Source: Tubiluchus corallicola (taxonomy: Eukaryota > Priapulida > Priapulimorpha > Priapulimorphida > Tubiluchidae). From it: DNA of 64,000 nt. The notes under the pieces were generated by a model. That model searched no databases. It was not told where the DNA came from and worked only from the letters and a program-made list of their open reading frames with translations. Shown piece by piece: positions 1 through 62,971 of the stretch. Within the stretch, counting starts at the first letter, position 1, and each line of letters opens with the position of its first letter. The stretch spans positions 1 through 64,000 of the forward strand of contig JAQGDQ010000560.1 of assembly GCA_030141605.1 (NCBI GenBank), written 5' to 3'. A program made the translations under genes and the position numbers.

Positions 1-71
1 GTGCATTCCTCAATACTGTCCTTTTGTTGTCTTCGCAGACTGTCAAGTTCCTTGCGTAGCAACTGATGAAC
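1..71 (-). CDS. CCDC186: CCDC186 coding exon 8, cut by the window edge
   Basis: Begins after acceptor TTGTTTTAG at 72-74 and encodes VHQLLRKELDSLRRQQKDSI..., heptad coiled coil in phase 0. The exon continues off the left edge. Confidence 0.85.
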
Positions 72-1687
72 CTAAAACAATAAATATAAACTTTATATTT
101 TAACTCTATCAACAACGAATTTAGATTGTTTTCATAAAACGTAGCACAGGCTGTCAGTGGAAAAGAATGTGGTATATCTAGAAGTAAATAAAAATGGCTG
201 CTGTAGAGTTATGAAGCCATCTTTGAAGCCAAAACTGTCCTAAATCTTAGACTCAGCAGACCATTGGTCACTTATTTCCCATTATAATAAATGTTCAAAA
301 ATGCTGAGTGTAACATTTTGGATATGATATGTCTACTGTCATTTGCTATTTACATTGATCAATTTAGCTTGTATAATTTTTGACTTATTTTGTCACCAGA
401 TGGCTGTTACTTTCTTATCCTGAGTTTTTATTTAAGCTAACTGAAGGCAGATCCATGTTTAATTTAGTTAATGGGGGTAGCCCAAAACCTTTACTTTCCT
501 TTGTACCAACTAACTCCCTGTTAGTGATTGAATTACAGAATGGATGATCATCATGGATGAATATTCAATACGTTAAAACCAAGATATATATTTCCTCGTA
601 TAAACTTCACTTGTTTTGCACATCTGCGTGGAGATGTAGTATTAGATATGCCATACAGATACACCTTGACAGTGTACATGTATAGTGAGTGGAAGCCAGA
701 AGGAGTGACTTAGAAAAGTTAGTTCAGGTAGAGAGCTGCTTACGTTCGGATGTTAAAAGCAGCCATGTTAATAAAAAGCAGTGAATAGATGTTGGTAACA
801 ACCTGAAAGTGCTTGTGGAGCCGACAATGGTTACCTTGGTGTAGCTGTAGCTGGTGGTGTTGGTAGACTAGACCCACTGTCAAAGTCAACTATCTTATAT
901 TCATCAATCTAAGGTGCAGAGCCATATTTTGGTATGGGACAGACAGTCATTTGCCATAGTGTTGATGTTCAAAACGTGCAATCAAAGTTCTTTAGACGGA
1001 TAATCGAATCGAGAGCCAACGAGCCCGATGACCCATTTTCAATCGTGTGGAATTTGTGCTCGAAAGCGAACACACCATGTGTACAATATGTGAAAGCTAT
1101 CCTTCGTAAAATGGATATTATCTCTGACGACCTCGAAAACACAAAACAACATATCAGGGATTCCGAAAGAACTAAACTGTGCACCTATCTCTATCTGAAT
1201 CCCCAACTATCTGTCAGTGCAATGTATAGTGTTAACGTAAATGAGCTCCATAGGATTAAAACATCTCGGTTACGCCTCTCCTCACATAACTTGGCTATTG
1301 AGACTGGAAGATATGCAAGGATAAAAAGAGAGGACAGGCTATGCTCCTGTTCTGGCTTAAACATTCAAACAGAAGAGCATGTTATCTGTTTTTGTCCACT
1401 TACGAATCACCTTCGTGAAGATAACACTGAACTGAGCTTCAACGATTTGCATGAATTTTTCAATGGAAACCCAATGTCATAGTGTGAATTTGTAAATAAT
1501 TCTTTAGCTGTTTTTGGACAGTAATGATCATGTTAGGCGATAATAAGTGTGTAGTGAGAATTTGTAAATAATTCTTCAGTTATTTTTTGACAGTAATGAT
1601 CATGTTATATGATCAAAAGTCCTTTTTTGTAGTGATCTATGGACTGAACCAAAATATCATGTTCGACTATCTCTTAATCAGTCAATA

Positions 1688-1721
<34 letters not shown>

Positions 1722-4700
1722 GAGTCAGACTTATTCTGTGCAGAACAAGTTGCCGCTAAGACATATCATTACTACATTTTCTAATATCTGGAGGAACATT
1801 AACTGTTTGCCACACGTCCATCATTAACTTCTTGAAGTGAAGATTGGGACTTGCTAGTAAAATGACTCAGGCCTGCTGGTGAAGTGCAGTCTATGGCGCC
1901 TCCCGCTAACTGCCTTCTTACTATCCCTTCATTACCTTGGGAATGGGCTTTACTTTGTGCACACCCTGTATATTTCTCATAAATTGTAATTCTGATTAGA
2001 AAACCGTTTTGTCAGTGTTTTAAAGCTTTATTTTGTTATCATACAGCAAATTTCACTGTTATTTACATCCTTTAACTTTTATGAAGTGAACGCAGCTTTA
2101 ATTTCAATAAACCTACAAAAGTGTTGATTTCTGTATAGTAATTATTTACTGTTCTGCGTTAATTTACATTTGGTGATTGGACATTGAGGTTACACCCAGT
2201 AATCACTAGACTGCCTAATAACAATTAATCAGGTAACGATCTCCGTAGAGTTTAAGCAATTTACAGATTTTGTTTGAAGTCCTTAGGCCAAAATTCCGTC
2301 ATGTTACACTGAGTGAGCAACTTTTGAAACACCCGATACAATAAATTTTATAAACTATTAGAATTCCTAGAATTACTTGGAGCGATTCCGAACAAAGTTC
2401 GTGCAAAGACATCTGGTGGAAATTTTTCAAACCGCTAAGACAGTTTTGCTTTGTGCTCGCAGCAAGAAAGGAGGAGAAGCAAACAAAAAAATTGAGAAGA
2501 TAAAAAAAGAAACACCGATGACATCCAACGAAAGCATGCAGCACAAAAAGAGCTGCTCTCACATTTTCAGTCGGCCCTAACGGTCCCACCTCCATTTCTT
2601 CGGCTTTCTCTTCGTGATGTTGGGGCGACTCGTGCTCTCTTTCTCTCGACTTCCCACTAAGGTCAAGGTCACCAGTCAGCGAGTCATCCGGATTCTAAAT
2701 ACAAAGTGAGATAAATTGTATGTTAGTTTTATTGAAGTTGACACAAAATTTTTAAATTACGTAGCTTAAAGAAAACTCTCTACTTAAAAAAATAAAACTT
2801 AAAAAATTCGTCTTGAAATTTTATACCGCTTACTGACTACCTTTTTGTATGCATGGCTTGGATCGGCCTTAACGCTGTATAAAATGTGTAAATTCAAGCT
2901 CCTGCGATGACCGTTAGGCGCAGTCATTTTAATAGCAGGTCGTTTGAAACAAGTTTTGATAACATTAAGTAAAGTTTGAAAAATAATCAAAGCATTGGTA
3001 GCAAACATGTTGCTAATTGAGGAAAATTTTAAATTACTATATCTTGTCAATAAGATTAAAAATACGTTTTTGGCTAGTGAGTGGTGCACCCTGGCGGGTG
3101 AGTCAGCAACATTTTACCAACTGCCACAAACATTTTAAATTATTATTTCTAGTTACATAAGTCTTTCCAGCAGGTAAGTGAAATGCTAAGTAATACAGAT
3201 TTGCAAAGAAAGTTTTTTGGGACATAATTTAGCATTTCCTTTTCTTCCCCTGATTTACATGTCGTAGTGACATCATGTAATGGCGCTGTCGGAACAGTAT
3301 TGCGAGAGATTTAAAATAAAAACAAACGAAAATTCCTTTTAATGCAAGTACGATATCCGCATAAAATTGCTGTAAAGTAATATAATTTCTAAGGCGATTT
3401 TTCTGAAACCTACTTTAGGTATCCCTTTTCCTTTAACATATAACAGTTTCGAATTTAACAAAAATTGTTTCAAGTCATGTAAGGATAACAAGGGAGTTCT
3501 TCACAAGACAAATATGTCAGAACAAAATACATAAATAAGATCACATGGCCTTTTTAAAACTTAATAACTAGTTCATTTAAATTATTAAATCATTAAATAA
3601 ACTGTGTTTATGTTAGGCAGCCTTAAAGGGAGTGAAAGTAATTAAAAGTATCATTCATCATCGTTACCTGATAGTTTTTGATCATTTGTTGACAATTTCG
3701 ACGAATTTGCTCAGTTTCCTCTCTGGTGATTTGAAGTTTTCTGGTAAGATCGTCCAGCTGTGCACGAGTTTCCTGAAACAACCAATCGATAAATACGGTG
3801 CACTATAACTACGCAAGGCGAATCACAACTGAGTTATCATGGCATTGTGCTTAGTGTGACTGGAGTTAAGAATAGAGTCGAGGTGGTCAGTTAATGGATT
3901 GGTGAACCGCTGCTGTATGCACATCAGAATGTGACTGAGGTTGGCTGCTGGTTCAGTGGCTCCTTTAAGAAGCATAAGTTCATAAAGAGATAGGTTGCGG
4001 TCTCACCACCATCATTCAAATTACAGCATGAAATGTTGGATTTCACTTTGCAGAGACCAACCATATTCAAATGAGATCTTGAAACGGGTCCCCTAAACAT
4101 TAGGTACAAGTATTTCAGCCTTGGAAAAATGCCACTCTCTTTTTCTGTCCATCCAGCTAGGGGGAGAGTTTAAAGGACAAGATAACACTTTTCATAAATA
4201 AAGCTTAAAAACTTCGTCTTGAAATTTTGCATCACTAACGTGCTGTCTTATTGCATGCAGAGCTTGCATTAGCAGTAATGCTGTATAAAACTTGTAGATT
4301 TAAACATCCGCGACAGACTGTTAATTAAGTGCAGGCATTTTAACGGTAAGTCATTTGAAACAAGTTTAGATAACATTGCGTGAAGTTTAAAAAATATTCA
4401 GAGAATTTGCAGAACACGCTTCACTAGGCTGACAATAAAAATACTTCTGTTTCTGTCTAATCGTCATAGTAATATTTTTTTAATCATACACCTGGCTGGG
4501 AATTTTATAATTTTTTCTATGTTTATATACTTACTTGGCACTGTGATATAAAAGCGTATTTTCTTTATTTAAAACGTAAAATTCCATAATTATTATAATG
4601 TCGTTCTTTTGGGGAACGCAGGATGCGGCCATGTTTCTTCTACGTCTAACTCTTGGCCAGGGTTGCCACTTTGTATGATGCTCACTGTATTGGAGGCTAA

Positions 4701-7700
4701 AAAGTGTGGAATTTTCTACTAAATCGGTGTATTAACGGCCGAGTTGTGTTGGCGCTTATTCCGTAATCATCAGAACATATGTTATGATAGAAAAAAGAGA
4801 ATATACAATAATCGATAATTATACAATAATTTAGTAAAGCAAAAGTAAAAAAACCGTGTGAAAAAATCTGGATTGAAAAAAATTAAAAGATTACTGCTAA
4901 CCAGGGGGAAATAAACAAACTTTGATTTCAACTGATTTTAAATATTCCGCGATTCAGCTTTAAACATTCACAAAGCTTTAAAAAAATTTTCCTCCCTCCC
5001 TACTGACATCCTTTGAGCTGATGAGGTAAGACAGAAACAATTTTTTTGTATCCAGCCTTAGTTAAGCAAAGTTTATATGACTTTATTTTGTCAGTGAGAC
5101 CAGATACATTTTATGCCGCACACTGGTATGGCGATGCTGTGCGGTTTTCACCAGGTAAGCCAGTGAGAAGACTTACTTTATGTGCATCAACCTCTGCCTG
5201 TAGTTTGTTAGCGTGCCACTTGTTTTTCATCGTTTGTGCGTTCACCTCTTCTTTTAATTTGGTTATCTCTTTCTGCAGCGACTGTACTTCTCCGGAGCGG
5301 GTTTCAATGGCCTTGCCCATGCTGGCTTTCTCTCCCTATTACAAAGGCAGTAAAATATGTGACTACCCGCTAGAAGTTGAACACAATGGTTCAAAACTTA
5401 ATTATTCACCCACAGAATGTGGCTTCTTCCACCCTCCGAATGTGGCTTCATCCACCTTCAGAATGTGGCTTCATCCACCTTCAGAATGTGGCTTCACCCA
5501 CATAATGTGGCTTCATCAACCCTCAGAATGTGGCTTCACCCACATAATGTGGCTTCATCCACCCTCAAAATGTGGCTTCATCCACCCTCAAAATGTGGCT
5601 TCATCCACCCTCAAAATGTGGCTTCATCCACCTTCAGAATGTGGCTTCATCCACCTTCAGAATGCGGCTTCATCCACCCCCAGAATGTGGCTTCATCCAC
5701 ATAATGTAGCTTCATCCACTGTCAGAATGTGGCTTCATCCACAGAATGTGGCTTCAACCACCCTCAGAATGTGGCTTTATCCACAGAATGAGGCTTCATT
5801 CAACTTTTTTACACAAATACATGATGCATTACAACAGAAGTACAAGTATTTTGTTTTGTTGTCATTTAGAAATACAATCAATTTAGAACTTGTCTTAAAT
5901 TTGCTATTTGTATTTTGCTAATTTAGCATTTCATCTTGAAGGATTACCCTTGATAAAAAGCTACATCCCTGTTCCTATTACAATATCTATTAATGCCAGC
6001 GTGAACCTGACTTAATAAATTTTAATTTTGTAGCCAAGGTGGCTCCATCTAAAAGTCGACTAAGCAAAAGAACAGACAGACAGACAAACACGACTGAGAA
6101 TAAAAGACGACCCTGCCGCAGAATTAATAATACCTTTAGTTGTTGCAATCGATTCATCAAGAAATCACGCTCTCTGGCATACTCTCCTACTTTCTTCTCC
6201 GCAGCTTCCCGGGCCTTCTTATTCTCCATCAGCGTCTTCTCGCTGCACGCGTACTTCATCACCATCCCATCTTTTTCAGAGCGGACGGCCTCAAATTGTT
6301 TCGTTAACTGTAATCAATGACCGTATCACTTAATTTACACAACAAACATCAATTTAAACGTAGAAAGAATGAAATACAAAAAGAAACATTGTTCCGAAGA
6401 AATTTTGTTTCCTGAAAAAACACGTTATTTAAATTTCGACATCAAGTTATATTTTCCAATATACATACATATATATATATATATAATTATTTACATATAA
6501 ATATATATATATATATATATAATTTTATTCGTACTCATGGTACAATCACATCAAATAAACAAACAGATCAACAAGCAAAATCACATTAATTAACAAGATT
6601 AGTAAGCAATGTGAATATATACAATTACATGAGAGTACGATATGTTAGTACGGCGTATAATTCATTCCTGTCATAAAAATCAAAACAATTACGATCTAGA
6701 GCCCATATAACTTCTTTAATAAAATTTACAGTCCGTATTTGTTCATCGCTAGCATTACTTCTTACATCTAATGTACAAGAAAAAACTTTAGAAAGAAAAT
6801 TTTCATTTGTGTAAAAAGTTTTGTACTCGTTACAAATAGATAACAAATTATAACCCGTTATAGAAGAGGCATGAAATCGAGAATCATGTGCAAAGAAATT
6901 GGCTATGCGATTTTCACTATATAAGCAACTAAGGTCAAATTTAACAAATCGTTTTTGTAGTTCTTTAAATGAGGGAACAATATCACATATAAGAGGAAGA
7001 CAGTATCTGTGTGATTTAAACGGCAAATTCCAGAGATTTCTTACTGCAACATTCCAAGCTGTACTTAGTTTAAAAATTTTACTATCGACTTTCCAGGTTT
7101 GACCTCCGTAGTAACTGCGACATTAGCTCTGGAAGACACGTGATTTTAAATCTAAGTAGGAAAAATGTTTAGGCACTTTAATATACACAAGACTATTGAA
7201 TCTGTGAAACGGATTAAGGGGTACTGATGACGTAATTCGGCGATATCGTACGTACCTATTCACTAATCATGCCAGCAAAGGAAAGATCAAATTATATGTG
7301 TTTCTATTTGTCCTTACTGGTACCCAAGAATCTGTCTGCAAATGTTTTGGAGTTAAGAGCCTCCAAAGGGCAGGCCAATTTCTTGACCTTTTCGTGTCCT
7401 GGGTCAGCGGGCCATCATGCGAAATTTAAAAAAAAAGTCCAAAATGCTGTTAAAATGGTCGCAAAGAATCATTCCTGAAAGTTTGGCACGTTTATCCGGT
7501 CAGCCCTCACTTCATCAAAATCTGGCCGTATCAAACCAGCCTAAATCTCACTCCGTCAGCAACAAAAAGTTAACGACATTTCACTTAACGTCGCATTAGC
7601 GTCGTTAATCGAGCACTTAGTGTAAAACAAGTTGTAACAGCCCTGACTTTTCTCTTAATGCTTAACAAAAATGTGGTCTGTGAAATTTGCAGTAAATTCT

Positions 7701-10700
7701 CTTTGTTTCGAAACAAAATGCTCTGCAACTGCCAATTTATCTTTTCTATTGCTTTATATTTATTAAAATCTGTGATTGTGATTAGCGAAAACGAGTTCTT
7801 TATCTTTCCCAACTTGTATGTATCTAGTTTACCTGATCTATACGAGCCCGTAACGTAGCAATGGCTTTCCTAGCTGCAGCATCCTGACTCTGCAGCTGCT
7901 GCTGACTGTTCTGGACCTTCTGTTCTAATTCCATGATTGTCTTCTCCAGCTAAGAAAAAATAGCAAAATAACTTCAAAGTTTGAAACTGAACGAACTTGG
8001 TGTTACAAACTGTTTTATTTAAAGGAAAACAGGCTGATTTTTTCATACCACATCCCTTTTCATACATTTTTCAAAGTACAGTAAAAATTATGCATTTTAA
8101 CACCTATGATAATGCCAAAGCATTTGTAAAAATTAAATAATAGGTTTAAAACTTAATTAATGGCAGGCGAGCTCAACTAGTGCTGACATCACAAATGAAC
8201 ATAATTTTCAACAGCATAAGCATTCCACGAGCATGTTGCACGTGTTTGCAAAAACAAACATTGAGTGCAGTGATACTATACAACATTCGATGTGAGATAC
8301 AAAAACTCAGGAAATATTAAGTTTAAAATTCAAATTTCAAGTTTCACGCACGAGCTCTCGAGTGTGAGTACTACATCACAACTGAACACCACTGAACTCA
8401 GATGAACAGCACCTGTTTTTTGTGCAATTCATTTCCAAGATGTAAGTGCTAGCTCTCTCCTCTAGCTAGTAAAAGGCAAAATGCACGTAACAAACTAACA
8501 GAGAGAGAACCTGCCGTTTCTGTGGTAATAATTCTTTCACGTTTCAATATTATATAAAATGGACTGTTTGAGTTATGGTTTTAGATTGGTTCTGGTTTTC
8601 CTTTAAGCAGTGTGGACTATTTTTACAAGTTAATAATTGTTTTATGTATGTGTTTTATAAGTAAAGCAAAGTGTATAAAAAATATTCTTATAAAACACAA
8701 CTAAACAAGAATAATTTTTTGATACAGTTTGGCACTCAGAGGTCGACCTACTTCGGGAAGATAGTTGTCAACTTGTGGCAAGACCAGAGCCCAAAACAGT
8801 TTGCTAAGATGAGACATTGATCTGGTGAACGTGTTTAGGCCTCGATCAGAATGTATCGAATTGCACACTTTCACAATGGGAAAATGCCAATGAGAAGTAC
8901 GGCACAAGGAGAATTGAACTTGGTGGTCGCCCGTCCATTCACTCACTAGCTTTAGTGTTGCTCAACCTTTTTTCCTGAGCATGCACACACAGTACTGGTA
9001 GCCTCTCAGCTACTCACTTGGATGCAGAACATGCCTAGTGTTTCTTTTCAGAGAAATCTGTTTTTATAGTGTTAACTAGAGACATGTTAATTTAATTATT
9101 AGCTTAATGAAAATTACTAAATAATTTTAGACGAGTAAATAATGGCTAACACTATTCGAACTAGCTTAGATGGTATGTAACAATTTGCATCTCACTACAT
9201 AAATTAATTACCGTAGCTATCTGAGTAACGTAAACCGTCTCAGTATCAGATGCAGGAACTGAAGTGGTTTCTTTGACAACTTGTAGTTGCTTAGCAACGA
9301 CATCTCTTTCACTAAGAGCATCACGTAGGCTTTGTGTAATATGCTTATTGTCTGCTTCTAACCTAGAATGCAAAGATTTCGCATATATACAATAATTTTA
9401 ATGTAACAAATTTCAAAGTTAGTCAGTCAAACGGAAGCAGTTTAGTAACAAAGTAACGCTAACAATAAGTTCCTTGACACGATGCTATTTTAATCATATA
9501 AATGCAGAAAAGCAAAAATAAAGCCTGCAAATTATAGCACTTCTACTGGGGCTCCAACCTAAGACCTTCATCTGTGCATGACTACTGTAAATTATGCTTA
9601 GATTAAACGTTCGAAATGCAATAGCAAATTAGAAAGTCTCGAAAATCTTACACTTCTACTGGGACTCCAACCCAAGACCTTCATCTATGCATGACTACTG
9701 TAAATTATGTTTAGGTTAAACGTTCGAAATGCAATAGTAAATTAGAAAGTCTCGAAAATCTTACACTTCTACTGGGACTCCAACCAAGACCTTCATCCGT
9801 GCATGACTACTGTAAATTATGCTTAGGTTAATGGTTCGAAATGCAATAGTAAATTAGAAAGCCTCGAAAATCTTGCACTTCTACTGGGGCTCCAACCCAA
9901 GACCTTCATCTATGCATGACTACTGTAAATTATGTTTAGATTAAATGTTCGAAATGCAAAAGTAAATTGGAAAGGCTGAAAAGTCTTACACTTCTACTGG
10001 GACTCCAACCCAAGACCTTCATCCGTGCATGACTACTGTAAATTATGCTTAGGTTAATGGTTCGAAATGCAATAGTAAATTAGAAAGCCTCGAAAATCTT
10101 GCACTTCTACTGGGGCTCCAACCCAAGACCTTCATCTATGCATGACTACTGTAAATTATGCTTAGGTTAAATGTTCGAAATGCAATAGTAAATTAGAAAG
10201 TCTCGAAAATCTTACACTTCTACTGGGACTCCAACCAAGACCTTCATCCGTGCATGACTACTGTAAATTATGTTTAGATTAGAATACTTTAAGCAAACAT
10301 GCAGACCCCTCAAAAGCTGACAGTGAGGCAGTGATTAGTTAGTATATAAGAGATGAGGACAAACTTGCTAGTAATGACAATGAAGAGGAAAGAAAACGGA
10401 GAAAAGAACGATTAAAGTGATGTAACAATGATAATCTCATCATTGCAATATTTGTAGTTGTATGAAAGGAAGCATGTTGTTTCTGAATATTAAAAGAACA
10501 ATTTTATTACAGGCACTTATAGTTAACAGTTATAGTTAAAAACAACACAACTTTATTAAAACTTTTACATTAAAAAGTTTAACTCATGCCAAAAGTTTTG
10601 ATAGGCTACTGCTGACATCTTCAGTGGAAAAATTTACAAACATACAACCAGTTTATATAGGCACCTATTATGCACTAATATGTATTTAGTAGAAGCCAAA

Positions 10701-12279
10701 TGGGTAATGAATAAGCAGACCAGTAGAAAAGAAATTGATACTGTAAATTATGCACTAATTATGTATTCAACAGAAGCCAAATAGGTAATGAATAAGCAGA
10801 GAAGTAAAGTAGCCTGTCAAAACGTTTGGCACGATTTTAACTTTTTAACGTAAAAGTTTTATTAAAGTTCGTTTTTTTTATAATTAAAAAGAACAGTTTT
10901 TGTTCAAGCTGTTACCTTGCAATTTGAACGTCTTGATCTTTACATCTTTGCATCAGTGATTGTAAATCTGTCTGTACAGCATCACAATCAGCATCCAGAC
11001 TCACGGTAACTAACCGGCAATCGCTGACTGAAGTATCGTCTTCTTTGTTTACATCATCACAGGAAAAATCACAAGTAAAATCGGACGAAAGTTCTTCTTT
11101 TACGATCAAGTTGAAAAATTTGTCGCTTTGGTGGCCTTTGCTTACATCTGTGGTGTCTAAACAAATTGTTGGTTCTTCCCTTTCATCTGAGTCATTTATA
11201 GTTTGCAGCTTATCACAAATTTGCGTAACATAATTTTCACTTGTACTATTCTTATTTGCTGCTGTATCGTGAATTTGCTCACATTCACTAAAATCAGCTT
11301 CACATGAAGCAACATTCGTCAAAACAGCCGTCGATTCAACACTTTGTTCGTAACCTACAATTTCTCTAATACCTTCGGGTTCTGACGAACAAACATGATT
11401 TACACACAGTGCTACCTCTTTTGTAACTTCTGGTATATCCTTCCTCTGCAGTTTCTCGCTGTCATTTAGCATTTCGTCCTGCACATTGTCTGTCGCATTA
11501 TCAGCATTATTGTCATTTGATTTAACATGACAACGATCTTCTGGCTCTTCTCCTGCATCTGCTACGGCAGTTGGTGTAAGACGTTCTACTATTGAAGTGT
11601 TTTCACTTTGAAATTCCGGAGAATCGGGAAAAGCGTCATTTTGACGATCATTTTTATTCTCTGTTTCACTTAAGTTATGATTGCTCGGATGTTCGGAAGC
11701 AGCATCTTCAATAGTTTCTCCATCACCAACGCACGGCAAAGTGTCGGCTAAAGAGGGACTGCTGTCTGGAAAATCACAGCCTGTGGAAGTTGACAAAAGA
11801 ACATCACTTTTTGGTTGACCGGAATGTTCAAAATCTACGTTGTCGTCGATCATATTATCACCTGAACAGTCTGCATCAGCAACTTCACTATCATCATTTG
11901 CCCCGTTGAGAAAGGAATTTGCGTGCGTAGTCGTGTCGGCCCCGTCTCCTCGTTCGTATTCCGTCATCTCGCTACCGGAAAAAGAAGAAACTGACAATAT
12001 TCTAGCATTACACGAAGTTGTTTGGCTGGCGTCGATGTTGTCATGCCGGACTGTGCTGCCATCTGGACGCCCATCACTCTGCAAACTGAGAGAGAAGTCA
12101 GAGATAATGTTCACTTTTGCATTTTCGTCACTGCTGGCATCAGGACCGGCCTTTGCATCACATTTTTTCAAATTTTCAACCACCGAGGCGCTGTTACACG
12201 TCTCTACGGGAAGTGAAATATCATTGTTGCATATCTGGCTTGAGAGCTGCTTTGCACTCGCAACACATTCATCTTCCAT
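1..12279 (-). CDS. CCDC186: CCDC186-like coiled-coil protein, 5' part (gene runs off the window)
   Basis: Spliced gene. Coding exons in transcription order: 12279-10916, 9362-9212, 7949-7833, 6307-6134, 5335-5177, 3772-3668, 2694-2590 and 71-1. Phases agree at all junctions (phase 2 after exon 1, then 0), giving about 749 residues without a stop. Residues 1-440 are acidic, Ser/Asp/Glu-rich and look disordered; from about 440 on it is heptad-type coiled coil. Blocks resemble human CCDC186: MVMKY then a K/E-rich helix (exon 4), ITKLKEEVNAQTMKNKW (exon 5), EQIRRNCQQMIKNYQ (exon 6). Known for the family: the human protein and worm CCCP-1 are Golgi-associated, bind RAB2 and act in dense-core vesicle cargo sorting. 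Human CCDC186 is about 900 residues, so the C-terminal part is missing only because the window ends. In minus-strand sense, a plausible 3' splice site (CTTTTTAG) just upstream of the ATG, with the exon edge at 12330, suggests a 5'UTR intron. Confidence 0.88.
934..1722 (+). mobile_element. Non-LTR retrotransposon (LINE) 3' end fragment
   Basis: A 182-codon open frame (934-1482) resembles the C-terminal end of LINE reverse transcriptases, with a zinc-knuckle-like tail: RLRLSSHNLAIETGRYARI, then RLCSCSGLNIQTEEHVICFC. Two imperfect copies of a ~70-bp 3'UTR unit (about 1483-1620) follow, then an (AT)n tail at 1688-1719. No upstream RT core is intact. Lies in the last sampled intron of CCDC186. Confidence 0.75.
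1688..1719. repeat. (TA)n microsatellite, LINE tail
   Basis: Uninterrupted AT dinucleotides directly after the LINE 3' sequence; probably its 3' tail. Confidence 0.85.
2590..2694 (-). CDS. CCDC186: CCDC186 coding exon 7 (probable)
   Basis: 35 codons, phase 0 at both ends; acceptor TTGTATTTAG, donor GTGGGA. Encodes NPDDSLTGDLDLSGKSRERE and then HESPQHHEEKAEEME. Its frame joins exons 6 and 8 without a stop and the charged sequence suits the coiled coil, but I see only weak similarity to the human protein here. It could be an alternative exon. Confidence 0.7.
2760..3440 (-). repeat. Repeat family A, copy 1
   Basis: Near full-length copy, inverted relative to 54860-55500. Shared stretches include the segment around 2800-3000 and the block at 3240-3360 (dinucleotide-poor, AAATCTC...). 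Non-coding; fills most of the intron between CCDC186 exons 6 and 7. Confidence 0.85.
3668..3772 (-). CDS. CCDC186: CCDC186 coding exon 6
   Basis: 35 codons, phase 0; acceptor TTGTTTCAG, donor GTAACGA. Ends REETEQIRRNCQQMIKNYQ, matching human KEEADQIRKNCQDMIKTYQ. Confidence 0.92.
3910..4410 (-). repeat. Repeat family A, copy 2, with an extra module
   Basis: Inverted copy of 35980-36460. It carries an additional ~280-bp module (3920-4190) with CCAGCTAGGGGGAGAGTTTA, joined to the family A end. The short open frames in it are not genes. Confidence 0.85.
4430..5055 (+). repeat. Repeat family F, copy 1
   Basis: Matches 50130-51220 over its whole length. Ends carry imperfect inverted repeats (TTCTGTTTCTGTCTAATCG at the left; its approximate complement near 5025-5050), so it may be a DNA-transposon derivative. 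Confidence 0.75.
5177..5335 (-). CDS. CCDC186: CCDC186 coding exon 5
   Basis: 53 codons, phase 0; acceptor TGTAATAG, donor GTAAGTC. EITKLKEEVNAQTMKNKWHA and NKLQAEVDAHK match the human KLKEDINSH / KWAQNKLKAEMDSHK block. A minisatellite starts about 75 bp upstream of the acceptor. Confidence 0.92.
5409..5800. repeat. Minisatellite, ~18-24 bp unit (AATGTGGCTTCATCCACC)
   Basis: About 18 variants of AGAATGTGGCTTCATCCACC with length changes between copies. The long open frames across it are an artefact of the repeat. Confidence 0.92.
6134..6307 (-). CDS. CCDC186: CCDC186 coding exon 4
   Basis: 58 codons, phase 0; acceptor TTGATTACAG, donor GTATTATT. The EKDGMVMKYACSEKTLMENK segment is the clearest match to human CCDC186 (EKEAMVMKY followed by a K/E-rich helix). 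Confidence 0.92.
6466..7116 (-). mobile_element. LINE 3' end fragment (CR1/Jockey-like)
   Basis: Minus-strand open frame from about 7116 to 6625 reads YGGQTWKVDSKIFKLSTAWN, then AVRNLWNLPFKSHRYCLPLI, then CDIVPSFKELQKRFVKF: the conserved C-terminal region of LINE reverse-transcriptase ORFs. An AT-rich tail with (AT)n at 6466-6520 follows. A stop interrupts the frame at its 5' edge, so it is 5'-truncated or dead. Confidence 0.8.
7833..7949 (-). CDS. CCDC186: CCDC186 coding exon 3
   Basis: 39 codons, phase 0 at both ends; acceptor TTTTTTCTTAG, donor GTAAAC. Contains LEKTIMELEQKVQNSQQQLQ then SQDAAARKAIATLRARIDQ, which aligns with the human stretch that has IEELNKEV and AQDVTAKNAVQQLHKEM. Confidence 0.9.
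8010..8560 (-). repeat. Repeat family B, copy 1
   Basis: Inverted relative to the copies at 42840-43450 and 52600-53200, sharing motifs such as CAGGTGCTGTACCTCTCAGT (diverged here) and TGTGATGTCATCA. Non-coding. Confidence 0.8.
8700..8985 (-). repeat. 5S-rRNA-like SINE relic
   Basis: Read on the minus strand, 8970-8920 contains GTTGAGCAACACTAAAGC and GAATGGACGGGCGACCACC, close to the box C region of animal 5S rRNA (GTTAAGCA...GGATGGGTGACCGCC). The rest downstream is unknown. Probably a 5S-derived SINE, not a 5S gene. Confidence 0.5.
9212..9362 (-). CDS. CCDC186: CCDC186 coding exon 2
   Basis: Residues about 455-505. Acceptor GCATTCTAG, donor GTAATTAA. Starts LEADNKHITQSLRDALSERD. 151 bp restores phase 0 after the phase-2 end of exon 1. 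Coiled coil followed by a short Ser/Thr-rich stretch. Confidence 0.85.
9541..10283. repeat. Tandem array, 7 copies of 113 bp
   Basis: TTCTACT recurs at 9541, 9654, 9767, 9879, 9992, 10105 and 10218, a spacing of 112-113 bp. On the minus strand each unit has GGTTGGAGTCCCAGTAG, which recalls a tRNA T-arm/B box, so a tRNA-derived SINE origin is possible. Confidence 0.93.
10549..10870. mobile_element. Fold-back MITE, ~65-bp inverted arms
   Basis: Left arm 10549-10613 and right arm 10806-10870 are inverted copies (AACTTTATTAAAACTTTTAC against GTAAAAGTTTTATTAAAGTT). The centre has a duplicated ~75-bp segment. A relative lies at 14925-15130. It ends about 45 bp from the donor of CCDC186 exon 1. Confidence 0.8.
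10916..12279 (-). CDS. CCDC186: CCDC186 coding exon 1 (acidic disordered N-terminus)
   Basis: Open from ATG at 12279 for 454 codons plus 2 bases, ending ...DVQIAR before donor GTAACAG. Composition is D/E/S/N/T-rich with no recognisable domain, as in the human N-terminus, which is also poorly conserved. The last ~20 residues (LQSLMQRCKDQDVQIAR) begin the coiled coil. The ATG is the first in the open frame. Confidence 0.85.
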
Positions 12280-13639
12280 CGTGAATAACTTAATTTACAT
12301 CGCTACCGACGAACAGCTGTAATACTCGTCCTAAAAAGAATTCATGAAAAGTAGGTATAACAAATGAGATTAAAGAAAATCCTTGAAAAAACTTACACAG
12401 ATACAAAATAAAAAAATTACAGAGATGCGGTATAAATGTTATCTTCGTAGTCACTAGGGTGCATTTCTATTTAGCATAAGCTATGATATTTTTAAATCTA
12501 AAAAACTAGTTAACAAATTTGACATTAATCAACAGATTATGATTGTAGTTGCAATTAATAAACCATTTCTAGCAAAATGTGAGCAACTGCCTACAGATGG
12601 CAGCTCTGTATAGTATGTATTCGTGCCAATTGTGTGCTGCGCCCGTACATTATGTGCGTTGTAGAATTTTTTATTTTGTTTAATTTTTTTCCAATGTCGG
12701 AAAATAGCGTTTGGCTAATGTTATCTTTTGAAATTGAAACATTTCGACAACAAATAAAAATTTTACTAGTTTTTACTACTAGAGCTAGGTAACATTAATC
12801 GCCATCTGCAAACTCGAAAACGAAATTTCGTAAATGCCTGATCATTTTTTGCGACGTTGGCACCAACTTTATTTTTTTAAGTACGAAGTTGATTGTTATT
12901 TTCTTTACATCAGTGTGCAAATAAAAAGTAATCCTTCTATTCAAGCACTATTTCAGCAATGTTTTTGATTTCGTCACTCTAGGAACGCATTAAAAAAAGA
13001 ACCACCCAAACTGCAAACTAGCCAATTTCTCAACAACTGCATTATCATGGTAATGGCTAAAGTAAAGAGTTAAGAAAAGTAGACTGTGTGAACCAAGCAG
13101 ATTTCGAATTCGAGACCTAGAGATTTTCTTCAAATTCCTTAGCTCGTCAGCCTCAATGTTAAATTGTTATCGAGGAACAGACCGCAACAGTTGATTAATG
13201 TCTTGAACCAGGTATCGCAACACTTGTATAATGGTTGCCCTAGCATTAATCAACTGCTCGCACTGAAGCAGAAAAATTATACTCAACCATATGAAAATCG
13301 GGCTGAAACGGAGTTCACAATTATTATTATAAAATTACTAAACAGACGTTTTTAGAATCCATTTGCACATAAAAATTTAGCAACATATGTAAACGAATAA
13401 AACAGCAACAACATAAAAACAAAATCGCCAACAAAACAAGTCCACTTCAAGTAATAGCAAAAATCTTTTCTCAATTTTGGATGATTTCCTCGTTTCGCGA
13501 CGAGCCTTTCACGCAACTGCGGTAATCGTAAACCAAAGGAGTTCAATTATTTATTGGGGCACTATCAATATCTATCATAACATTAAGCTTTTGGCCCATA
13601 AGACAAAGAATACACTATAAACAATTAATGTTATAGCGA

Positions 13640-14260
13640 ATGTTGTGGATCTCCGAGGAAGAAAGAAATGCAAAAAATGCATTTTTAGCAATATTGGAAA
13701 AGGAAATTCTTGTGAGGTAGACTGTAAACATAATAGAAACAGCAAAGTTGTATGAAATAAATATAAATTGGAATTGGGAAGGGATTAAAACGGATAACCA
13801 ATTCTAAATTAAAGCAAAAAATAAAAGTAGATATAGTAAATATTTGAATACATTGCTAAAGAAAAGTGTCCGAAAATGAAAAAAACTGAGACTTATGAAA
13901 GATGCTATAGGAAGATGGAATGATTCAGTGGATTACGTAATTAAGTGTAAGCAAAAATAGTCTATGAAATAACAGAATGGAAACTGAATATGGTTTTAGT
14001 AAAAACAAATTTCAAAAATAGGTTTAAGAATAATCCAAAATGTTTTCTGTGTAAAATTCATGGTGGCACAACGGAACACTTACGGATGTTTGGGAAAGCA
14101 ATAAAAAATATATTGGGTGAAGAAGATATAGAGTTAGATTTAAAAACATTTAAAGCAGGAAAATTAGTAATGATCAATGATAGTATACAGAAAGTAATAA
14201 ACGTAAGACAGAAAATGGGTTTAGAAATAGAAATTTAGTATTATAATGTCTACACTAGGT
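13640..14260 (+). mobile_element. Decayed LINE 3' end
   Basis: An 82-codon open frame at 13990-14238 contains NNPKCFLCKIHGGTTEHL, a zinc-knuckle-like tail of LINE reverse transcriptases (compare C-x2-C...TTEH), then a charged helix. Upstream frames are broken. Moderate confidence only. Confidence 0.5.
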
Positions 14261-14924
14261 TGTGGGTACAGCATGTTAAAAGTACAATTTTTGGCGCCCT
14301 ATTAGGACTTTCACTTTTCTGCTATACTTTTAGCCTACTAACGTAATTGTAGAAGAAAGGCCAGTATGATCAGCCTGACACACAAACAAGAGCTTTTGAC
14401 TTTTCAGATCAGGAAGATTTCTTTGTAAAAACAAGTTAGAATTTTCTAAGCCATAGCTGAAACTGCGTTTTCTATAATTATAACTTTAAGATTTGGGCAT
14501 TAAAAGCAAATTATAAAGCTGAATTTCACTTCAGTCTCTTTTCTGACTATAGGTAAAGATAAGATAAGATAAGAAAATAGTATTTAGTACTTCAAACCCA
14601 TGTTCTTTTTTGGTAATATTGAGATGCTTTTGTTAATCATTTGTTTACAAAAATTATCTTTTATAATACATAATTATGGCAACATCAGTTCATTTTCAGC
14701 AATTTCGGTAAGTGCTAGCCATAGTTATGCCCGAGGCACGCTTTCCGATGTTCAAATTCAAACATTTTGCCATTGATGTACAAGCGCCATGCTCATTCTG
14801 TTGTTTTGTACCTTTTCGTGGTAACTTGTGAAATGTTTCTAATAGAAAGAAGTTAAAAAATTCGTAAGGTAAGTCTTTGCTTTGACTTCGCTTTTACGGT
14901 ATAAACATTATAACAATTGTCGTT

Positions 14925-15170
14925 AAAACGCCACAAGTTTATTAAAACTTAATTTGCGTAGTTAAAAAATGACAAACATATAACCAATTTGTAAAGGCAG
15001 CGTACAGAATAGAACATTATGCACTAGTGTGTAATGCTCTGTACTATAGGCCCTGGCTGTACAAGCTGGTTGTATGTTTGCAAAAATTGACCACTGATGA
15101 CGACAGCAATAGCTCTGTTGACACACTTGACATCATTTTTTAAGTATAATTGCCTTTTTGGTGCCTGTAA
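14925..15170. repeat. Relative of the 10549-10870 fold-back element
   Basis: Shares AAGTTTATTAAAACTTAATT, GACAAACATATAACCAATTT and TATGCACTA motifs with 10550-10690. Confidence 0.5.
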
Positions 15171-15280
15171 TAAAAAAGTAACAATTGTATTGTATGCTAA
15201 AAAGCTTAAAAAAGTGTCTAATTGATGATTGCTTAATGCAAAAAATTATATGCTTTCATTGCGTAACTTAGACTGACTGA

Positions 15281-16022
15281 GGCGCTATTACACTTTCGCA
15301 CCTCCTAGTTTCGTCTAGGTTATTACTCGTTTCTAGGCTCGTAGGTCATTATTCTATTATTCTCACGTCATCATTGAATGTTTCCGCTAATCTCCTGGTA
15401 ATTTACTCATATATTTAGTGTATAATTACCAATAATTACGTTGTATTCACAGTTGTACACTATACAGTTCGTATCTCCATCATGTTTGTGTGTGTAGTCA
15501 CGTGACGAATTTCGTACTAGTTTATGCATTATCAGGGCCTAGCTTAAAAGGCACGTGACACACTTTTATCTTAACTGCATTTACGAAATAAAGAAAAAAC
15601 CTTTATTTTATAATCTAATAATACTACAGTAATAAATAAAATTAGTGATAATTAACTGTAGTCTTCTAAAATAATTTCCTCGTATATGCCAGCTTGGGTC
15701 TCACTATACAGTGAAGAAGAAACAAAAAATTCGGGAAGTCTTTTGAAGAAAAGACAATGACTGACACAGGATTATAATGGCGTGTTAGTTTTATATACTC
15801 ATTATCACCACCATTATTGCAGTGTTCGTCATCACTACCACTATTCTGATACCATCGAAACAGTGAAGATACCGCGATAAATATTTCACATTAATATTTT
15901 TGAAGTAGCGGGGGAACACTGTAATACGATACAAACTCCCGTGGCTGCAACCAAAATAATCATAAATTATGCAAAAAAACTAGGCCAGAAAAAACTAGGA
16001 GGTACGAAAGTGTAATAGCACC
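15281..16022. mobile_element. 742-bp MITE with 8-bp target-site duplication
   Basis: Ends are inverted repeats of about 35 bp: GGCGCTATTACACTTTCGCA at the left; complement of the right is GGTGCTATTACACTTTCGTA. They are flanked by identical CTGACTGA at 15273-15280 and 16023-16030. An 8-bp duplication points to hAT or P-like transposases. No coding sequence remains. Confidence 0.9.
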
Positions 16023-16344
16023 CTGACTGAGTGCTTTGTATCAGGGATAGGCGCATCGACTAATTTCCTGATCTGCAAAATATTTGGTCCGCAAACTTGA
16101 AATCTGCAATCCTCTGAAAATCCGCATTTTGCTATTAACAGCAATTCGCAGCCACTTTACTAAATTAATTTAAATCCGTTGTCCGTTCTGATCCGCATCC
16201 TGCTTACATGGTTATTTTTAATTCAAGTTTAATAAAAATTTAAATAAAAACATTGTGCTTAGTTAAAAATGTAGATATTTATGCAGGGTCGTGAAATTTT
16301 TGATCCGCATCTGGTCCGTAATTCCTTATTTTCAATAGTACATC

Positions 16345-16870
16345 CGGTCCAGTCCGCAAAAAATCTTGCGAATCTCGGTCTTGTACTCACTCAACCATTG
16401 AACACATGACTTTATAGTGAATGGTACAAAACATATTCTGGTGTCAAGTACAGGTAAACGATCAGTACCAAGAAACATCGGAATTGTTTGACCTAGATAA
16501 TCCTAGTAATACCTGTATTCATGTATCAGGTATAGGTAAGGGATGGTACCAAGTACATCTGATCCGGTCCGCAAAAAATCTTGCGAATCTCGGTCTTGTA
16601 CTCACTCAACCATTGAACACATGACTGTATAGTAAATGGTACAAAACATATTCTGGTGTCAAGTACAGGTAAAGGATCAGTACCAAGAAACATCGGAATT
16701 GTTTGACTTAGATAATCCTAGTAATACCTGTATTCATGTATCAGGTACAGGTAAACAATCAGTACCAAGAAACATCGGAATTGTTTGACCTAGATAATCC
16801 TAATAATACCTGTATTCATGTATCAGGTATAGGTAAGGGATCGGTACCAAGAACCATCGGAGTTGTTTGA
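16345..16870. repeat. Tandem duplication, ~215-bp unit with sub-repeats
   Basis: CCGCAAAAAATCTTGCGAAT occurs at 16354 and 16569, and GATCAGTACCAAGAAACATC occurs three times (about 16449, 16675, 16759). Confidence 0.88.
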
Positions 16871-17005
16871 ATAAGATAACATTAGTAAATATATATAATA
16901 GCACCATGTAGAAATTACCATACGTAGCTTTATGAAGTCTTAGAGACATCTTTCCAGTCACTTGACAGGCTTTTTCTCGTGTGTTTTGCATGTTCTGTAG
17001 AGAAT

Positions 17006-17385
17006 GACTCATATGCATTTTAAAACACATTTGACTCAGTTAGTAGATGTGACCTCTGAAAGCTATTGTAATGTATACACAAAGAAGCATAATGCTGAGT
17101 TAAAGTGATACTAAAGTTTTAGTCATATGACTCATATGCATTCTAAAACATATTTGACTCAGTTCTTAGACGTGACCTCTAAAAGCTTTTGTCTTGTATA
17201 CACAAAGGAGCATAATGCTGAGTTAAAGTGATACTAAAGTTTTAGTCATATGACTCATATGCATTTTAAAACACATTTGACTCAGTTCGTAGACGTGACC
17301 TCTGAAAGCTATTGTCTTGTATACACAAATGAGCATAATGCTGAGTTTAAGTGATACTAAAGTTTTAGTCATAATATGCATGAAT
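17006..17385. repeat. Tandem array, 3 copies of 123 bp
   Basis: GACTCATATGCATT begins at 17006, 17129 and 17252, with a degenerate fourth start near 17370. Confidence 0.92.
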
Positions 17386-17497
17386 AATCTGCCCATATTA
17401 GAGATGAAGTTCATCTTGGAGTCACCATTACAAATGATACAAAACCTGCAACACCCATGTCAATGAAGGACAAAAAAGCAAATTCAATACTGGGTCT

Positions 17498-17620
17498 GGT
17501 CAATAAAGCTTTTGTTAGAAGCTTTGTTAATAACAATTCACTGTGAAATAATGATTACTGGTCAATAAAGCTTTTGTTAGAAGCTTTGTTAATAACAATT
17601 CACTGTGAAATAATGATTAT
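17498..17620. repeat. Direct duplication of ~61 bp
   Basis: TGGTCAATAAAGCTTTTGTT through TAATGATTA is present twice back to back. Confidence 0.92.
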
Positions 17621-17734
17621 ATATATTCAAAGTTCAACCAATAGTTCATTTTTATCTCTCTCCATTCTGAAAAATCCAATCATAGATATTAAATAGTTGG
17701 AAAGAGCAGTGGACTCTTGTATCTGAAATTGCTG

Positions 17735-18619
17735 GGGGTGCTGCTTCAGGAAATTTTTAGCCATTGTTTTATTACTGTGTAAAACGAAACAAACATATGT
17801 AATTTTGATGTTGTAATTGTAATTTTAAACAAACAAATTTGAAACAAACGTATGAAAATTTATAGATAAATTTGATAAAATCCTAAACAAAAATTATTGT
17901 TTGCTTACAAATAGCCTAAATAACAAATTTGAAACAAACGTATGAAAATTTATAGATAAATTTGATAAAATCCTAAACAAAAAATATTGTTTGCTTACGA
18001 ATAGCTTAAATAACAAATTTGAAACAAACGTATGAAAATTTATAGATAAATTTGATAAAATCCTAAACAAAAAATATTGTTTGCTTACGAATAGCTTAAA
18101 TTGCTTCAGTTCAAGAATATGCTGGTACACCGCTTTTAAGCAAGCAACAACTGACAACACACACTGCGTGAACGACAGTACTCTTTCTACTAAAGTGCAG
18201 CGTCGTATCTCAGACAAATTCAATATAGTAAGTCTTTTTCTGTAGTTCTTTCTTTATGCTTGTACGGAACTAGAGCACGTGAGGGTAGTCCTGTTTGCTT
18301 GACTGCCCAGCAGAGTGCGCTCCAGCAACATGGTGTTTGGCTGTTGTGTGCATGCGGCCGTGGAAAGTATGGTTGCTCACACAGTTTGTTGTCAGTTGTC
18401 ACATGCTTACCGTTAATGCATCAAGCTTTAACTGCAAAAAGTTAGGTTATTAGTAAGCAAAAAATATTTTGTTTAGGATTTTATCAAATTTATGCATAAA
18501 TTTCCGCATGTTTGTTTGTTTAAAATTACAATTACAAATTACAACATTGAAATTACATACGTTTGTTTCATTTTACACACTATTCAAATAATGGCTAAAA
18601 TTTTCTGAAGCTGCACCGC
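17735..18619. mobile_element. Fold-back element with ~100-bp inverted arms
   Basis: Left arm 17735-17835 and right arm 18525-18619 are inverted copies (GGAAATTTTTAGCCATT against AATGGCTAAAATTTTCTG). The centre has three 90-bp tandem copies (GAAACAAACG at 17841, 17931 and 18021) and a segment (18220-18400) related to 60050-60190. It ends 230 bp before the TDRD1 ATG. Confidence 0.85.
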
Positions 18620-18848
18620 TACTAATTTTAGCTTTAAGTTGCCACTATTGTGTCGTGATATGTACCGTATCATGATTAGGTGTTTTGTCCTGGTTAAAAC
18701 AGTGTAAGATTTGATACGTTCTAAAAGATTTGTGGCTGGTACACTTATAGCGCCTGGAATGCACCGTTTTTTGCATTTGTTGTGCCGCAGGTCAAATGGA
18801 AATTGAGTACCTAGAGACATCTAGTGTTTTTTTTCCAGATTCGTAGAA

Positions 18849-62971
<44,123 letters not shown>

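What the first reader, a model, noticed from the sequence alone, without database searches (positions are those of the whole stretch)
1..62971. Head-to-head CCDC186-TDRD1 pair matches the human arrangement
The minus-strand gene is a CCDC186 orthologue and the plus-strand gene is TDRD1-like; start codons are 6.6 kb apart. In the human genome (10q25) CCDC186 is on the minus strand with TDRD1 next to it on the plus strand. The same divergent order in a clearly non-vertebrate, intron-rich, repeat-rich genome suggests microsynteny kept since early animals. A Golgi/vesicle gene and a germline piRNA gene have no known functional link, so a shared regulatory region may hold them together (inference).
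Basis: partly seen in the sequence, partly recalled or inferred. Interest (0 to 1): 0.85.

Follow-up and report, generated by a model that had tools for sequence, protein, structure and literature searches.

The report
Ancient gene neighbours: CCDC186, TDRD1, ABLIM
A vesicle-sorting gene and a germline transposon-silencing gene sit back to back in an invertebrate just as they do in human, with a third gene (ABLIM) further along, so this is most likely a stretch of gene order kept since the early bilaterian animals; no special mechanism holding them together was found.

Summary
The minus-strand gene is CCDC186: its 5' half lies in the window, and later exons were found in order on contigs C1666 and C1898. 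The plus-strand gene has RRM, MYND and five Tudor domains, i.e. TDRD1/Vreteno type. They are adjacent and divergent. Putative start codons lie 6.6-10.3 kb apart because the first TDRD1 exon is uncertain. New here: further along the same contig (C1212, 140 kb), after a rhotekin-like and an unidentified gene, is an ABLIM-type gene on the minus strand. That matches CCDC186(-) TDRD1(+) ... ABLIM1(-) at human 10q25 (human strands recalled). Hox homeodomains suggest a spiralian protostome, so the block probably dates to the bilaterian ancestor; 'since early animals' was not testable. The TDRD1 gene carries the RRM known in insect Vreteno but absent in mouse and fish Tdrd1, plus five Tudors; with the synteny this suggests that both descend from one gene whose RRM vertebrates lost. 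A shared regulatory region is not supported: the gap is kilobases wide, about 30% repeats, without a single CpG island. Passive retention is the best explanation. New member of a known kind (ancient microsynteny), moderately interesting.

The parts
10916..12279 (-). CCDC186 first coding exon, ATG at 12279; acidic, low-complexity N-terminus
   Evidence: gene model; phase fits next exon; no homology test of this exon
9212..9362 (-). CCDC186 exon 2 (coiled coil)
   Evidence: one search finds this stretch on C1212 only
7833..7949 (-). CCDC186 exon 3 (coiled coil)
6134..6307 (-). CCDC186 exon 4; the model's donor is at 6191 but homology runs to 6137, end at 6134 inferred by eye
   Evidence: (49% identity over 57 aa to recalled human CCDC186)
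5177..5335 (-). CCDC186 exon 5
   Evidence: (46% over 52 aa)
3668..3772 (-). CCDC186 exon 6; last CCDC186 exon found in the window; later exons on C1666 and C1898
   Evidence: 53% over 36 aa
12280..18848 (.). Intergenic spacer (longer, to about 22.5 kb, if the TDRD1 start is ATG 22541); about 30% tandem and interspersed repeats; no gene recognised
18849..18874 (+).
22513..22629 (+). TDRD1 N-terminal exon
22964..26842 (+). TDRD1 RRM, three exons 22964..23036, 25234..25322, 26606..26842 with fitting phases
   Evidence: first two exons given a bonus by hand; RRM_1 1.6e-12
30422..31256 (+). TDRD1 MYND zinc finger, split over exons 30422..30752 and 31160..31256, phases fit
   Evidence: (bonus by hand); zf-MYND 7.6e-11; exon hit alone
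34598..35044 (+). TDRD1 linker exon, Q/N/G-rich
36600..40683 (+). TDRD1 Tudor 1 (exons 36600..36701, 36947..37171, 40500..40683); best solved match TDRD1
   Evidence: (9.1e-28)
44238..51696 (+). TDRD1 Tudor 2 (exons 44238..44438, 46289..46472, 49676..49758, 51147..51167, 51462..51696)
   Evidence: (1.6e-21)
51619..56100 (+). TDRD1 Tudor 3, approximate limits (end of exon 51462..51696, exon 53700..53767, first part of exon 55676..56787)
   Evidence: (1.5e-19)
56109..56468 (+). TDRD1 Tudor 4, inside exon 55676..56787
   Evidence: (8.7e-24)
56685..61406 (+). TDRD1 Tudor 5, approximate limits (end of exon 55676..56787, exons 57604..57717, 59282..59443, 61197..about 61406); 3' end of the gene beyond this not fixed
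   Evidence: (1.3e-15)

Best explanation
The window shows a conserved microsyntenic block. CCDC186(-) and TDRD1(+) are head to head, followed on the same contig by ABLIM(-), as at human 10q25. The order was most likely inherited from the bilaterian ancestor and kept passively in a region that rearranged little, without a compact shared promoter. The two genes work separately. CCDC186 is a coiled-coil trans-Golgi protein acting in dense-core vesicle maturation. TDRD1/Vreteno is a nuage scaffold whose Tudor domains dock arginine-methylated PIWI proteins; the MYND supports granule localisation, and the RRM may contact RNA. Shown: gene content, order, orientation, domain content. Inferred: the biochemical roles here, the age, and passive retention.
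For: CCDC186: three exons collinear with the recalled human protein; later exons in order; 9 of 9 matches to the window's CCDC186 coiled coil are on C1212 or C1666. TDRD1: RRM, MYND, 5 Tudors; best solved relative TDRD1; of 9 contigs with Tudor matches and 12 with MYND matches only C1212 is shared. ABLIM: 2 LIM stretches; villin headpiece. Vertebrate neighbours: passages. Under random order of an assumed 20,000 genes the divergent pair has chance about 2.5e-5 and the third gene about 7.5e-5 (rough and post hoc). [quoted passage not shown] Roles: abstract start of PMC10419233 for CCDC186; passages of PMC6411831 and PMC10711660 for the Tudor proteins.
Against: No other invertebrate genome could be compared. 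The CCDC186 comparison uses human letters recalled from memory, and Pfam and PDB do not identify it. Human strands are recalled. The same paper says vertebrates lost 84% of bilaterian-ancestor blocks and that the vertebrate ancestor inherited 70 blocks against 110-124 expected by chance in shuffled genomes, so loosely defined vertebrate blocks can be accidental. VWA2 and AFAP1L2, between TDRD1 and ABLIM1 in vertebrates, were not recognised on C1212; a rhotekin-like and an unidentified gene are there instead. Four villin-headpiece places exist in this genome and no tree shows that the one on C1212 is the ABLIM1 orthologue; in PDB dematin scores slightly above ABLIM2. Tudor similarity alone is not decisive: for Tudors 2 and 4 the best solved match is fly Tudor, and a multi-Tudor ORF on C814 also matches recalled TDRD1 (111 bits over one stretch, against 185 bits for the window gene).
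Confidence: 0.85

Rival explanations
1. The pair is held together by a shared cis-regulatory region or bidirectional promoter that both genes need.
For: Divergent order and long persistence would fit it; the abstract of PMC8851819 says some microsyntenies are co-regulated (listing). CpG ratio is raised (1.1 against a contig mean of 0.85) over CCDC186 exon 1 and the kilobase upstream, and again (1.08) at 15.5-16.5 kb in the spacer.
Against: Putative start codons 6.6-10.3 kb apart; spacer about 30% repeats; raised CpG ratios also occur elsewhere (1.27 at 21-22 kb, 1.11 at 23-24 kb), so no single island; a third gene also stays; the expected expression of the two genes differs (neuroendocrine against germline, recalled).
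Confidence: 0.08
2. Chance or convergent adjacency without common descent of the arrangement.
For: Only one invertebrate genome was examined; about one orientation-matched adjacent pair is expected by chance between two random orders (rule of thumb, assumed gene number); chance blocks are not rare in shuffled vertebrate comparisons.
Against: Immediate adjacency with the right orientation plus a third gene in the expected strand on the same contig makes chance unlikely.
Confidence: 0.04
3. Assembly artefact: the two genes are joined only by a misassembly.
For: The assembly seems to hold both haplotypes in places (C1666 against C1212, 91-95% identity) and has a perfect 1.8 kb inverted repeat on C1898 beside CCDC186.
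Against: No N in C1212; no fold-back palindrome of 60 bases or more in the window (18 inverted pairs, all with arms more than 6 kb apart); the result reproduces the vertebrate order, which a random misjoin would not.
Confidence: 0.03

Closest known systems
Human 10q25 block CCDC186-TDRD1-VWA2-AFAP1L2-ABLIM1
   Same: CCDC186 and TDRD1 adjacent and divergent; ABLIM on the same side and on the same strand as in human (human strands recalled)
   Different: Between TDRD1 and ABLIM a rhotekin-like gene and an unidentified gene were recognised instead of VWA2 and AFAP1L2. On the other side only about 11 kb beyond the CCDC186 3' end were read (C1898:220001-231218) and no gene was recognised there; NHLRC2 and ADRB1 were not searched for
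Vreteno (silkworm, fly) and Veneno (mosquito)
   Same: RRM and MYND before extended Tudor domains (Vreteno: PMC10711660, passages; mosquito Veneno: PMC6411831, passages)
   Different: Five Tudors here against two or three in Vreteno
Vertebrate TDRD1
   Same: MYND followed by a run of extended Tudors; best solved relative of Tudor 1 is TDRD1
   Different: Has an RRM and a fifth Tudor; mouse and fish Tdrd1 lack the RRM and have four
Microsyntenic blocks of PMC8851819 (three or more orthologues, each separated by up to five intervening genes)
   Same: CCDC186, TDRD1 and ABLIM, with two recognised intervening genes, meet this definition against human
   Different: Not checked whether this block is in their list (supplements not available)

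Membership tests
CCDC186 | Long coiled-coil protein collinear with human CCDC186 | tested here: met
   Exons match a recalled human sequence in order on C1212, C1666 and C1898, strongly at the ends, weakly in the middle; recalled letters, so a database check is still wanted
CCDC186 | No second gene that fits better in the same genome | tested here: met
   9 matches, all on C1212 or C1666; C1666 looks allelic, though a recent duplication is not excluded
TDRD1/Vreteno | MYND zinc finger together with several extended Tudor domains | tested here: met
   only contig with both kinds of match
Vreteno-type architecture | N-terminal RRM upstream of MYND | tested here: met
TDRD1 as in vertebrates | No RRM, four Tudors | tested here: not met
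   RRM and five Tudors; orthologue candidate, not the vertebrate architecture
TDRD4, 5, 7, 2, 9, 12 | RING, LOTUS, KH or helicase domain with the Tudors (table rows of PMC12147562, passage) | tested here: not met
   none in the Pfam scan of the model
TDRD1 orthology | Position in a tree of full-length Tudor proteins | not tested
   no animal protein collection in the tools
ABLIM | LIM domains plus C-terminal villin headpiece | tested here: met
   LIM 5.9e-24, 2 stretches; headpiece 2.2e-12, dematin and ABLIM2 the best solved matches; the AbLIM anchor match was below cut-off for one exon and absent for the joined model
Microsyntenic block (PMC8851819 definition) | At least three orthologues with at most five intervening genes | tested here: met
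   two intervening genes recognised between TDRD1 and ABLIM; vertebrate side from a cattle gene list; definition. Orthology of ABLIM not tested by a tree
Bidirectional promoter pair | Start sites within about 1 kb (recalled definition) | tested here: not met
   start codons at least 6.6 kb apart; real transcription starts unknown

The most novel reading that the evidence does not exclude
Insect Vreteno and vertebrate TDRD1 descend from one gene. Position beside CCDC186 and ABLIM, plus an RRM-MYND-five-Tudor architecture that unites both forms, would make this the ancestral bilaterian state: vertebrates lost the RRM and one Tudor, while insects duplicated the gene (Vreteno, Veneno, CG9684/CG9925) and lost Tudors. 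It would show that the RNA-binding module of the PIWI scaffold was given up in the vertebrate line. Probability lowered from 0.5 to 0.4 on checking: the table of PMC12147562 pairs TDRD1 with fly CG9684/CG9925 and lists Vreteno without a human counterpart, against PMC10711660, which treats Tdrd1 as the Vreteno homologue.
Probability: 0.4. Interest if true: 0.55.

Novelty: new member of a known kind. Interest (0 to 1): 0.42.

Why it matters
If right, it adds a protostome-vertebrate conserved block (CCDC186-TDRD1-ABLIM) and gives a position-based handle on piRNA-scaffold orthology, which sequence clustering resolves poorly (PMC12147562, passage, reports one 'noisy' group for TDRD1-2-4-5-6-7-15 and AKAP1). 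It also warns against reading shared regulation into an old gene pair.

Tried and rejected
Shared promoter: CpG profile, repeat content and spacing do not support it. The bacterial-type promoter scan found 35 sites against 32.3 expected and does not apply to an animal; not used. Rfam: no match in the window. tRNA: none. Viral-contig scan for relatives of the large Tudor exon: one pattern match, no relative. Phylum from COX1: no match in the assembly. PDB search with the CCDC186 coiled coil: best E 0.14, nothing meaningful; Pfam gave only coiled-coil and other hits below cut-off. DCLRE1A-type domain as a further neighbour: the one DRMBL match is on C716. The unaided gene model read the MYND exon in another frame, ended the exon before it early and left out one RRM exon; four exons were given a +40 bonus by hand because domain motifs and splice phases fitted, and the coding score was trained on exons of this same window, so model scores are not independent. 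A predicted CCDC186 exon at 2694..2563 has no homology support and was dropped. In one search the shuffled queries were scored without exon linking. Tudor 5 was not searched alone against PDB. Literature on the pair: searches list 5, 2, 3, 5 and 1 papers, 13 distinct; I read passages of six and none of those passages describes the pair in an invertebrate; the other seven were seen as listings only. Irimia 2012 and Handler 2011 are not held, so whether the block is in print is open.

Full report
What is in the window. The window is the first 64 kb of contig C1212 (140,388 bp) of a 343.5 Mb assembly with 2,344 contigs. A small gene finder (codon score, splice sites, phase) gave two divergent genes. 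The minus gene starts at ATG 12279 and runs to the contig edge; I keep six exons of its model. The plus gene runs from about 18.8-22.5 kb to about 61.4 kb or beyond; the model (exon penalty 5) has 27 exons, several short and doubtful.

CCDC186. Pfam and PDB do not identify it, so I compared with human CCDC186 letters recalled from memory. Three neighbouring exons match consecutive pieces, residues 1-57, 60-111 and 111-146 of the recalled fragment, at 46-53% identity with linked E 1e-26. Their scores are 58.2, 57.4 and 43.5 bits, against a best of 26.6 in 20 shuffled queries. The recalled C-terminal part then found two segments at 70-72% identity on contig C1898, minus strand (74-75%, with a weaker segment between them in order). 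Middle exons lie on C1666 in order (residues 34-63, 63-108, 108-179, at 33-40% identity, linked E 2e-11). C1666 matches C1212 from base 2 to 6148 at 91-95% DNA identity, introns included, except about 745 bases (969-1712) that C1666 lacks (for the exons). I read it as the other haplotype; a recent duplication is not excluded. C1898 carries a perfect 1.8 kb inverted repeat 358 bases from the CCDC186 exon, so the physical chain C1212-C1666-C1898 is plausible but not proven.

TDRD1. Pieces of the joined model match RRM_1 (1.6e-12), zf-MYND (7.6e-11) and TUDOR five times (9.1e-28, 1.6e-21, 1.5e-19, 8.7e-24, 1.3e-15), all above Pfam's cut-offs (whole model). The MYND is split by an intron with fitting phases. 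The best solved relative of the five-Tudor region, over Tudor 1, is TDRD1 5m9n (1.2e-18). Of the four Tudors judged against PDB, TDRD1 is the top hit for 1 and 3 and fly Tudor for 2 and 4, so single domains do not decide. Domain combination does: among the table rows of PMC12147562 shown in the passage only TDRD1 has several Tudors plus MYND, and in this genome only C1212 has both kinds of match. By eye, and with the motif recalled, the aromatic cage for methyl-arginine looks intact in Tudors 1, 2 and 4 and degraded in 3 and 5.

Architecture. PMC10711660 (passages) states that fly and silkworm Vreteno have RRM, MYND and two or three extended Tudors, whereas mouse and fish Tdrd1, which it calls Vreteno homologues, lack the RRM and have four. 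The present gene joins both: RRM, MYND and five Tudors. PMC6411831 (passages) reports an RRM in mosquito Veneno, calls Tdrd1 its closest mouse orthologue, and finds that the MYND, not the RRM, matters for granule localisation. Against a simple one-to-one story, PMC12147562 pairs TDRD1 with fly CG9684/CG9925 and lists Vreteno separately.

Neighbours. On the rest of C1212 I found a rhotekin-like gene on the minus strand at about 72-86 kb (Anillin domain 6.7e-18; PH and HR1 below cut-off; the name rests partly on recall), an unidentified gene with coiled coil on the plus strand at 86.9-93.3 kb (no family above cut-off), and an ABLIM-type gene on the minus strand at 120.5-137.6 kb (two LIM stretches, 5.9e-24; villin headpiece 2.2e-12, one of four such places in the genome; best solved matches dematin and ABLIM2). 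A cattle paper lists NHLRC2, DCLRE1A, ADRB1, CCDC186, TDRD1, VWA2, AFAP1L2, a microRNA, ABLIM1 (passage). Dog and chicken papers agree in part (passages), and a review lists TDRD1, VWA2, ADRB1 and ABLIM1 as neighbours of human AFAP1L2 (passage). Strands in human are recalled. With two recognised intervening genes, CCDC186, TDRD1 and ABLIM meet the block definition of PMC8851819 (section 5, part 1 of 2).

Which animal. Of 118 homeodomain matches I fetched 30 loci and could read a homeodomain in 25 of them. Hox1 to Hox5, Antp-like, one UbdA-type and Post-type homeodomains suggest a spiralian protostome; these names rest on recalled sequence signatures. COX1 is not in the assembly.

Mechanism. 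A compact shared promoter is unlikely. Start codons lie 6,570, 7,027 or 10,262 bp apart depending on the first exon. About 30% of the spacer 12280-18848 is repeats, a lower bound because only this contig was compared. The CpG ratio is raised to 1.1 over CCDC186 exon 1 and the kilobase upstream, to 1.08 at 15.5-16.5 kb and to 1.27 at 21-22 kb, against a contig mean of 0.85: several rises, no single island. Since a third gene is kept too, passive retention is the simplest reading. Under random order of an assumed 20,000 genes the pair has chance about 2.5e-5, but it was noticed after the fact. PMC8851819 reports 256 new blocks in the bilaterian ancestor, largely retained among lophotrochozoans, but 84% lost in vertebrates, where inherited blocks are fewer than in shuffled genomes; a vertebrate match is therefore less expected and loosely defined ones may be accidental.

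Verdict. The finding is real and now stronger by one gene, dated to at least the bilaterian ancestor if the phylum reading holds. The regulatory inference is not supported. The more informative result may be the TDRD1 architecture.

Noticed in passing
G000:C1212:120450-137612 (minus), outside the window: ABLIM-type gene (LIM domains and villin headpiece) on the same contig and strand as expected from human 10q25.
   Followed up: yes
G000:C1212:71980-85724 (minus): Rhotekin-like gene (Anillin domain, weak HR1 and PH pieces) between TDRD1 and ABLIM, not part of the vertebrate block.
   Followed up: partly
G000:C1212:86937-93267 (plus): Gene with coiled coil and no known domain between the rhotekin-like gene and ABLIM.
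   Followed up: partly
G000:C1898:241634-245626: Perfect 1,800 bp inverted repeat with a 393 bp spacer; its arms carry an exon of a plus-strand gene that further on has a chitobiase C-terminal-like domain; possible fold-back artefact or recent palindrome.
   Followed up: partly
G000:C1666 against C1212:2-6148: Apparently allelic contigs differing by 5-9%, i.e. a very heterozygous animal; two homeobox loci (L044, L045) on different contigs also read the same.
   Followed up: partly
window 969-1712: About 745 bases present in C1212 but lacking in C1666, overlapping an ORF (913-1482) that looks like a retrotransposon fragment; perhaps an insertion that differs between haplotypes.
   Followed up: no
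window 48295-49616 and 40825-41535: Long tandem arrays (55 bp x 24, 31 bp x 23) inside TDRD1 introns.
   Followed up: no
G000:C814:33701-48133 (minus): Open frames of 1,148 and 1,330 aa with many Tudor domains, apparently with few introns; TDRD6/Tudor-like candidate.
   Followed up: no
window 6625-7122 (minus): ORF that looks like a retrotransposon fragment within a CCDC186 intron.
   Followed up: no
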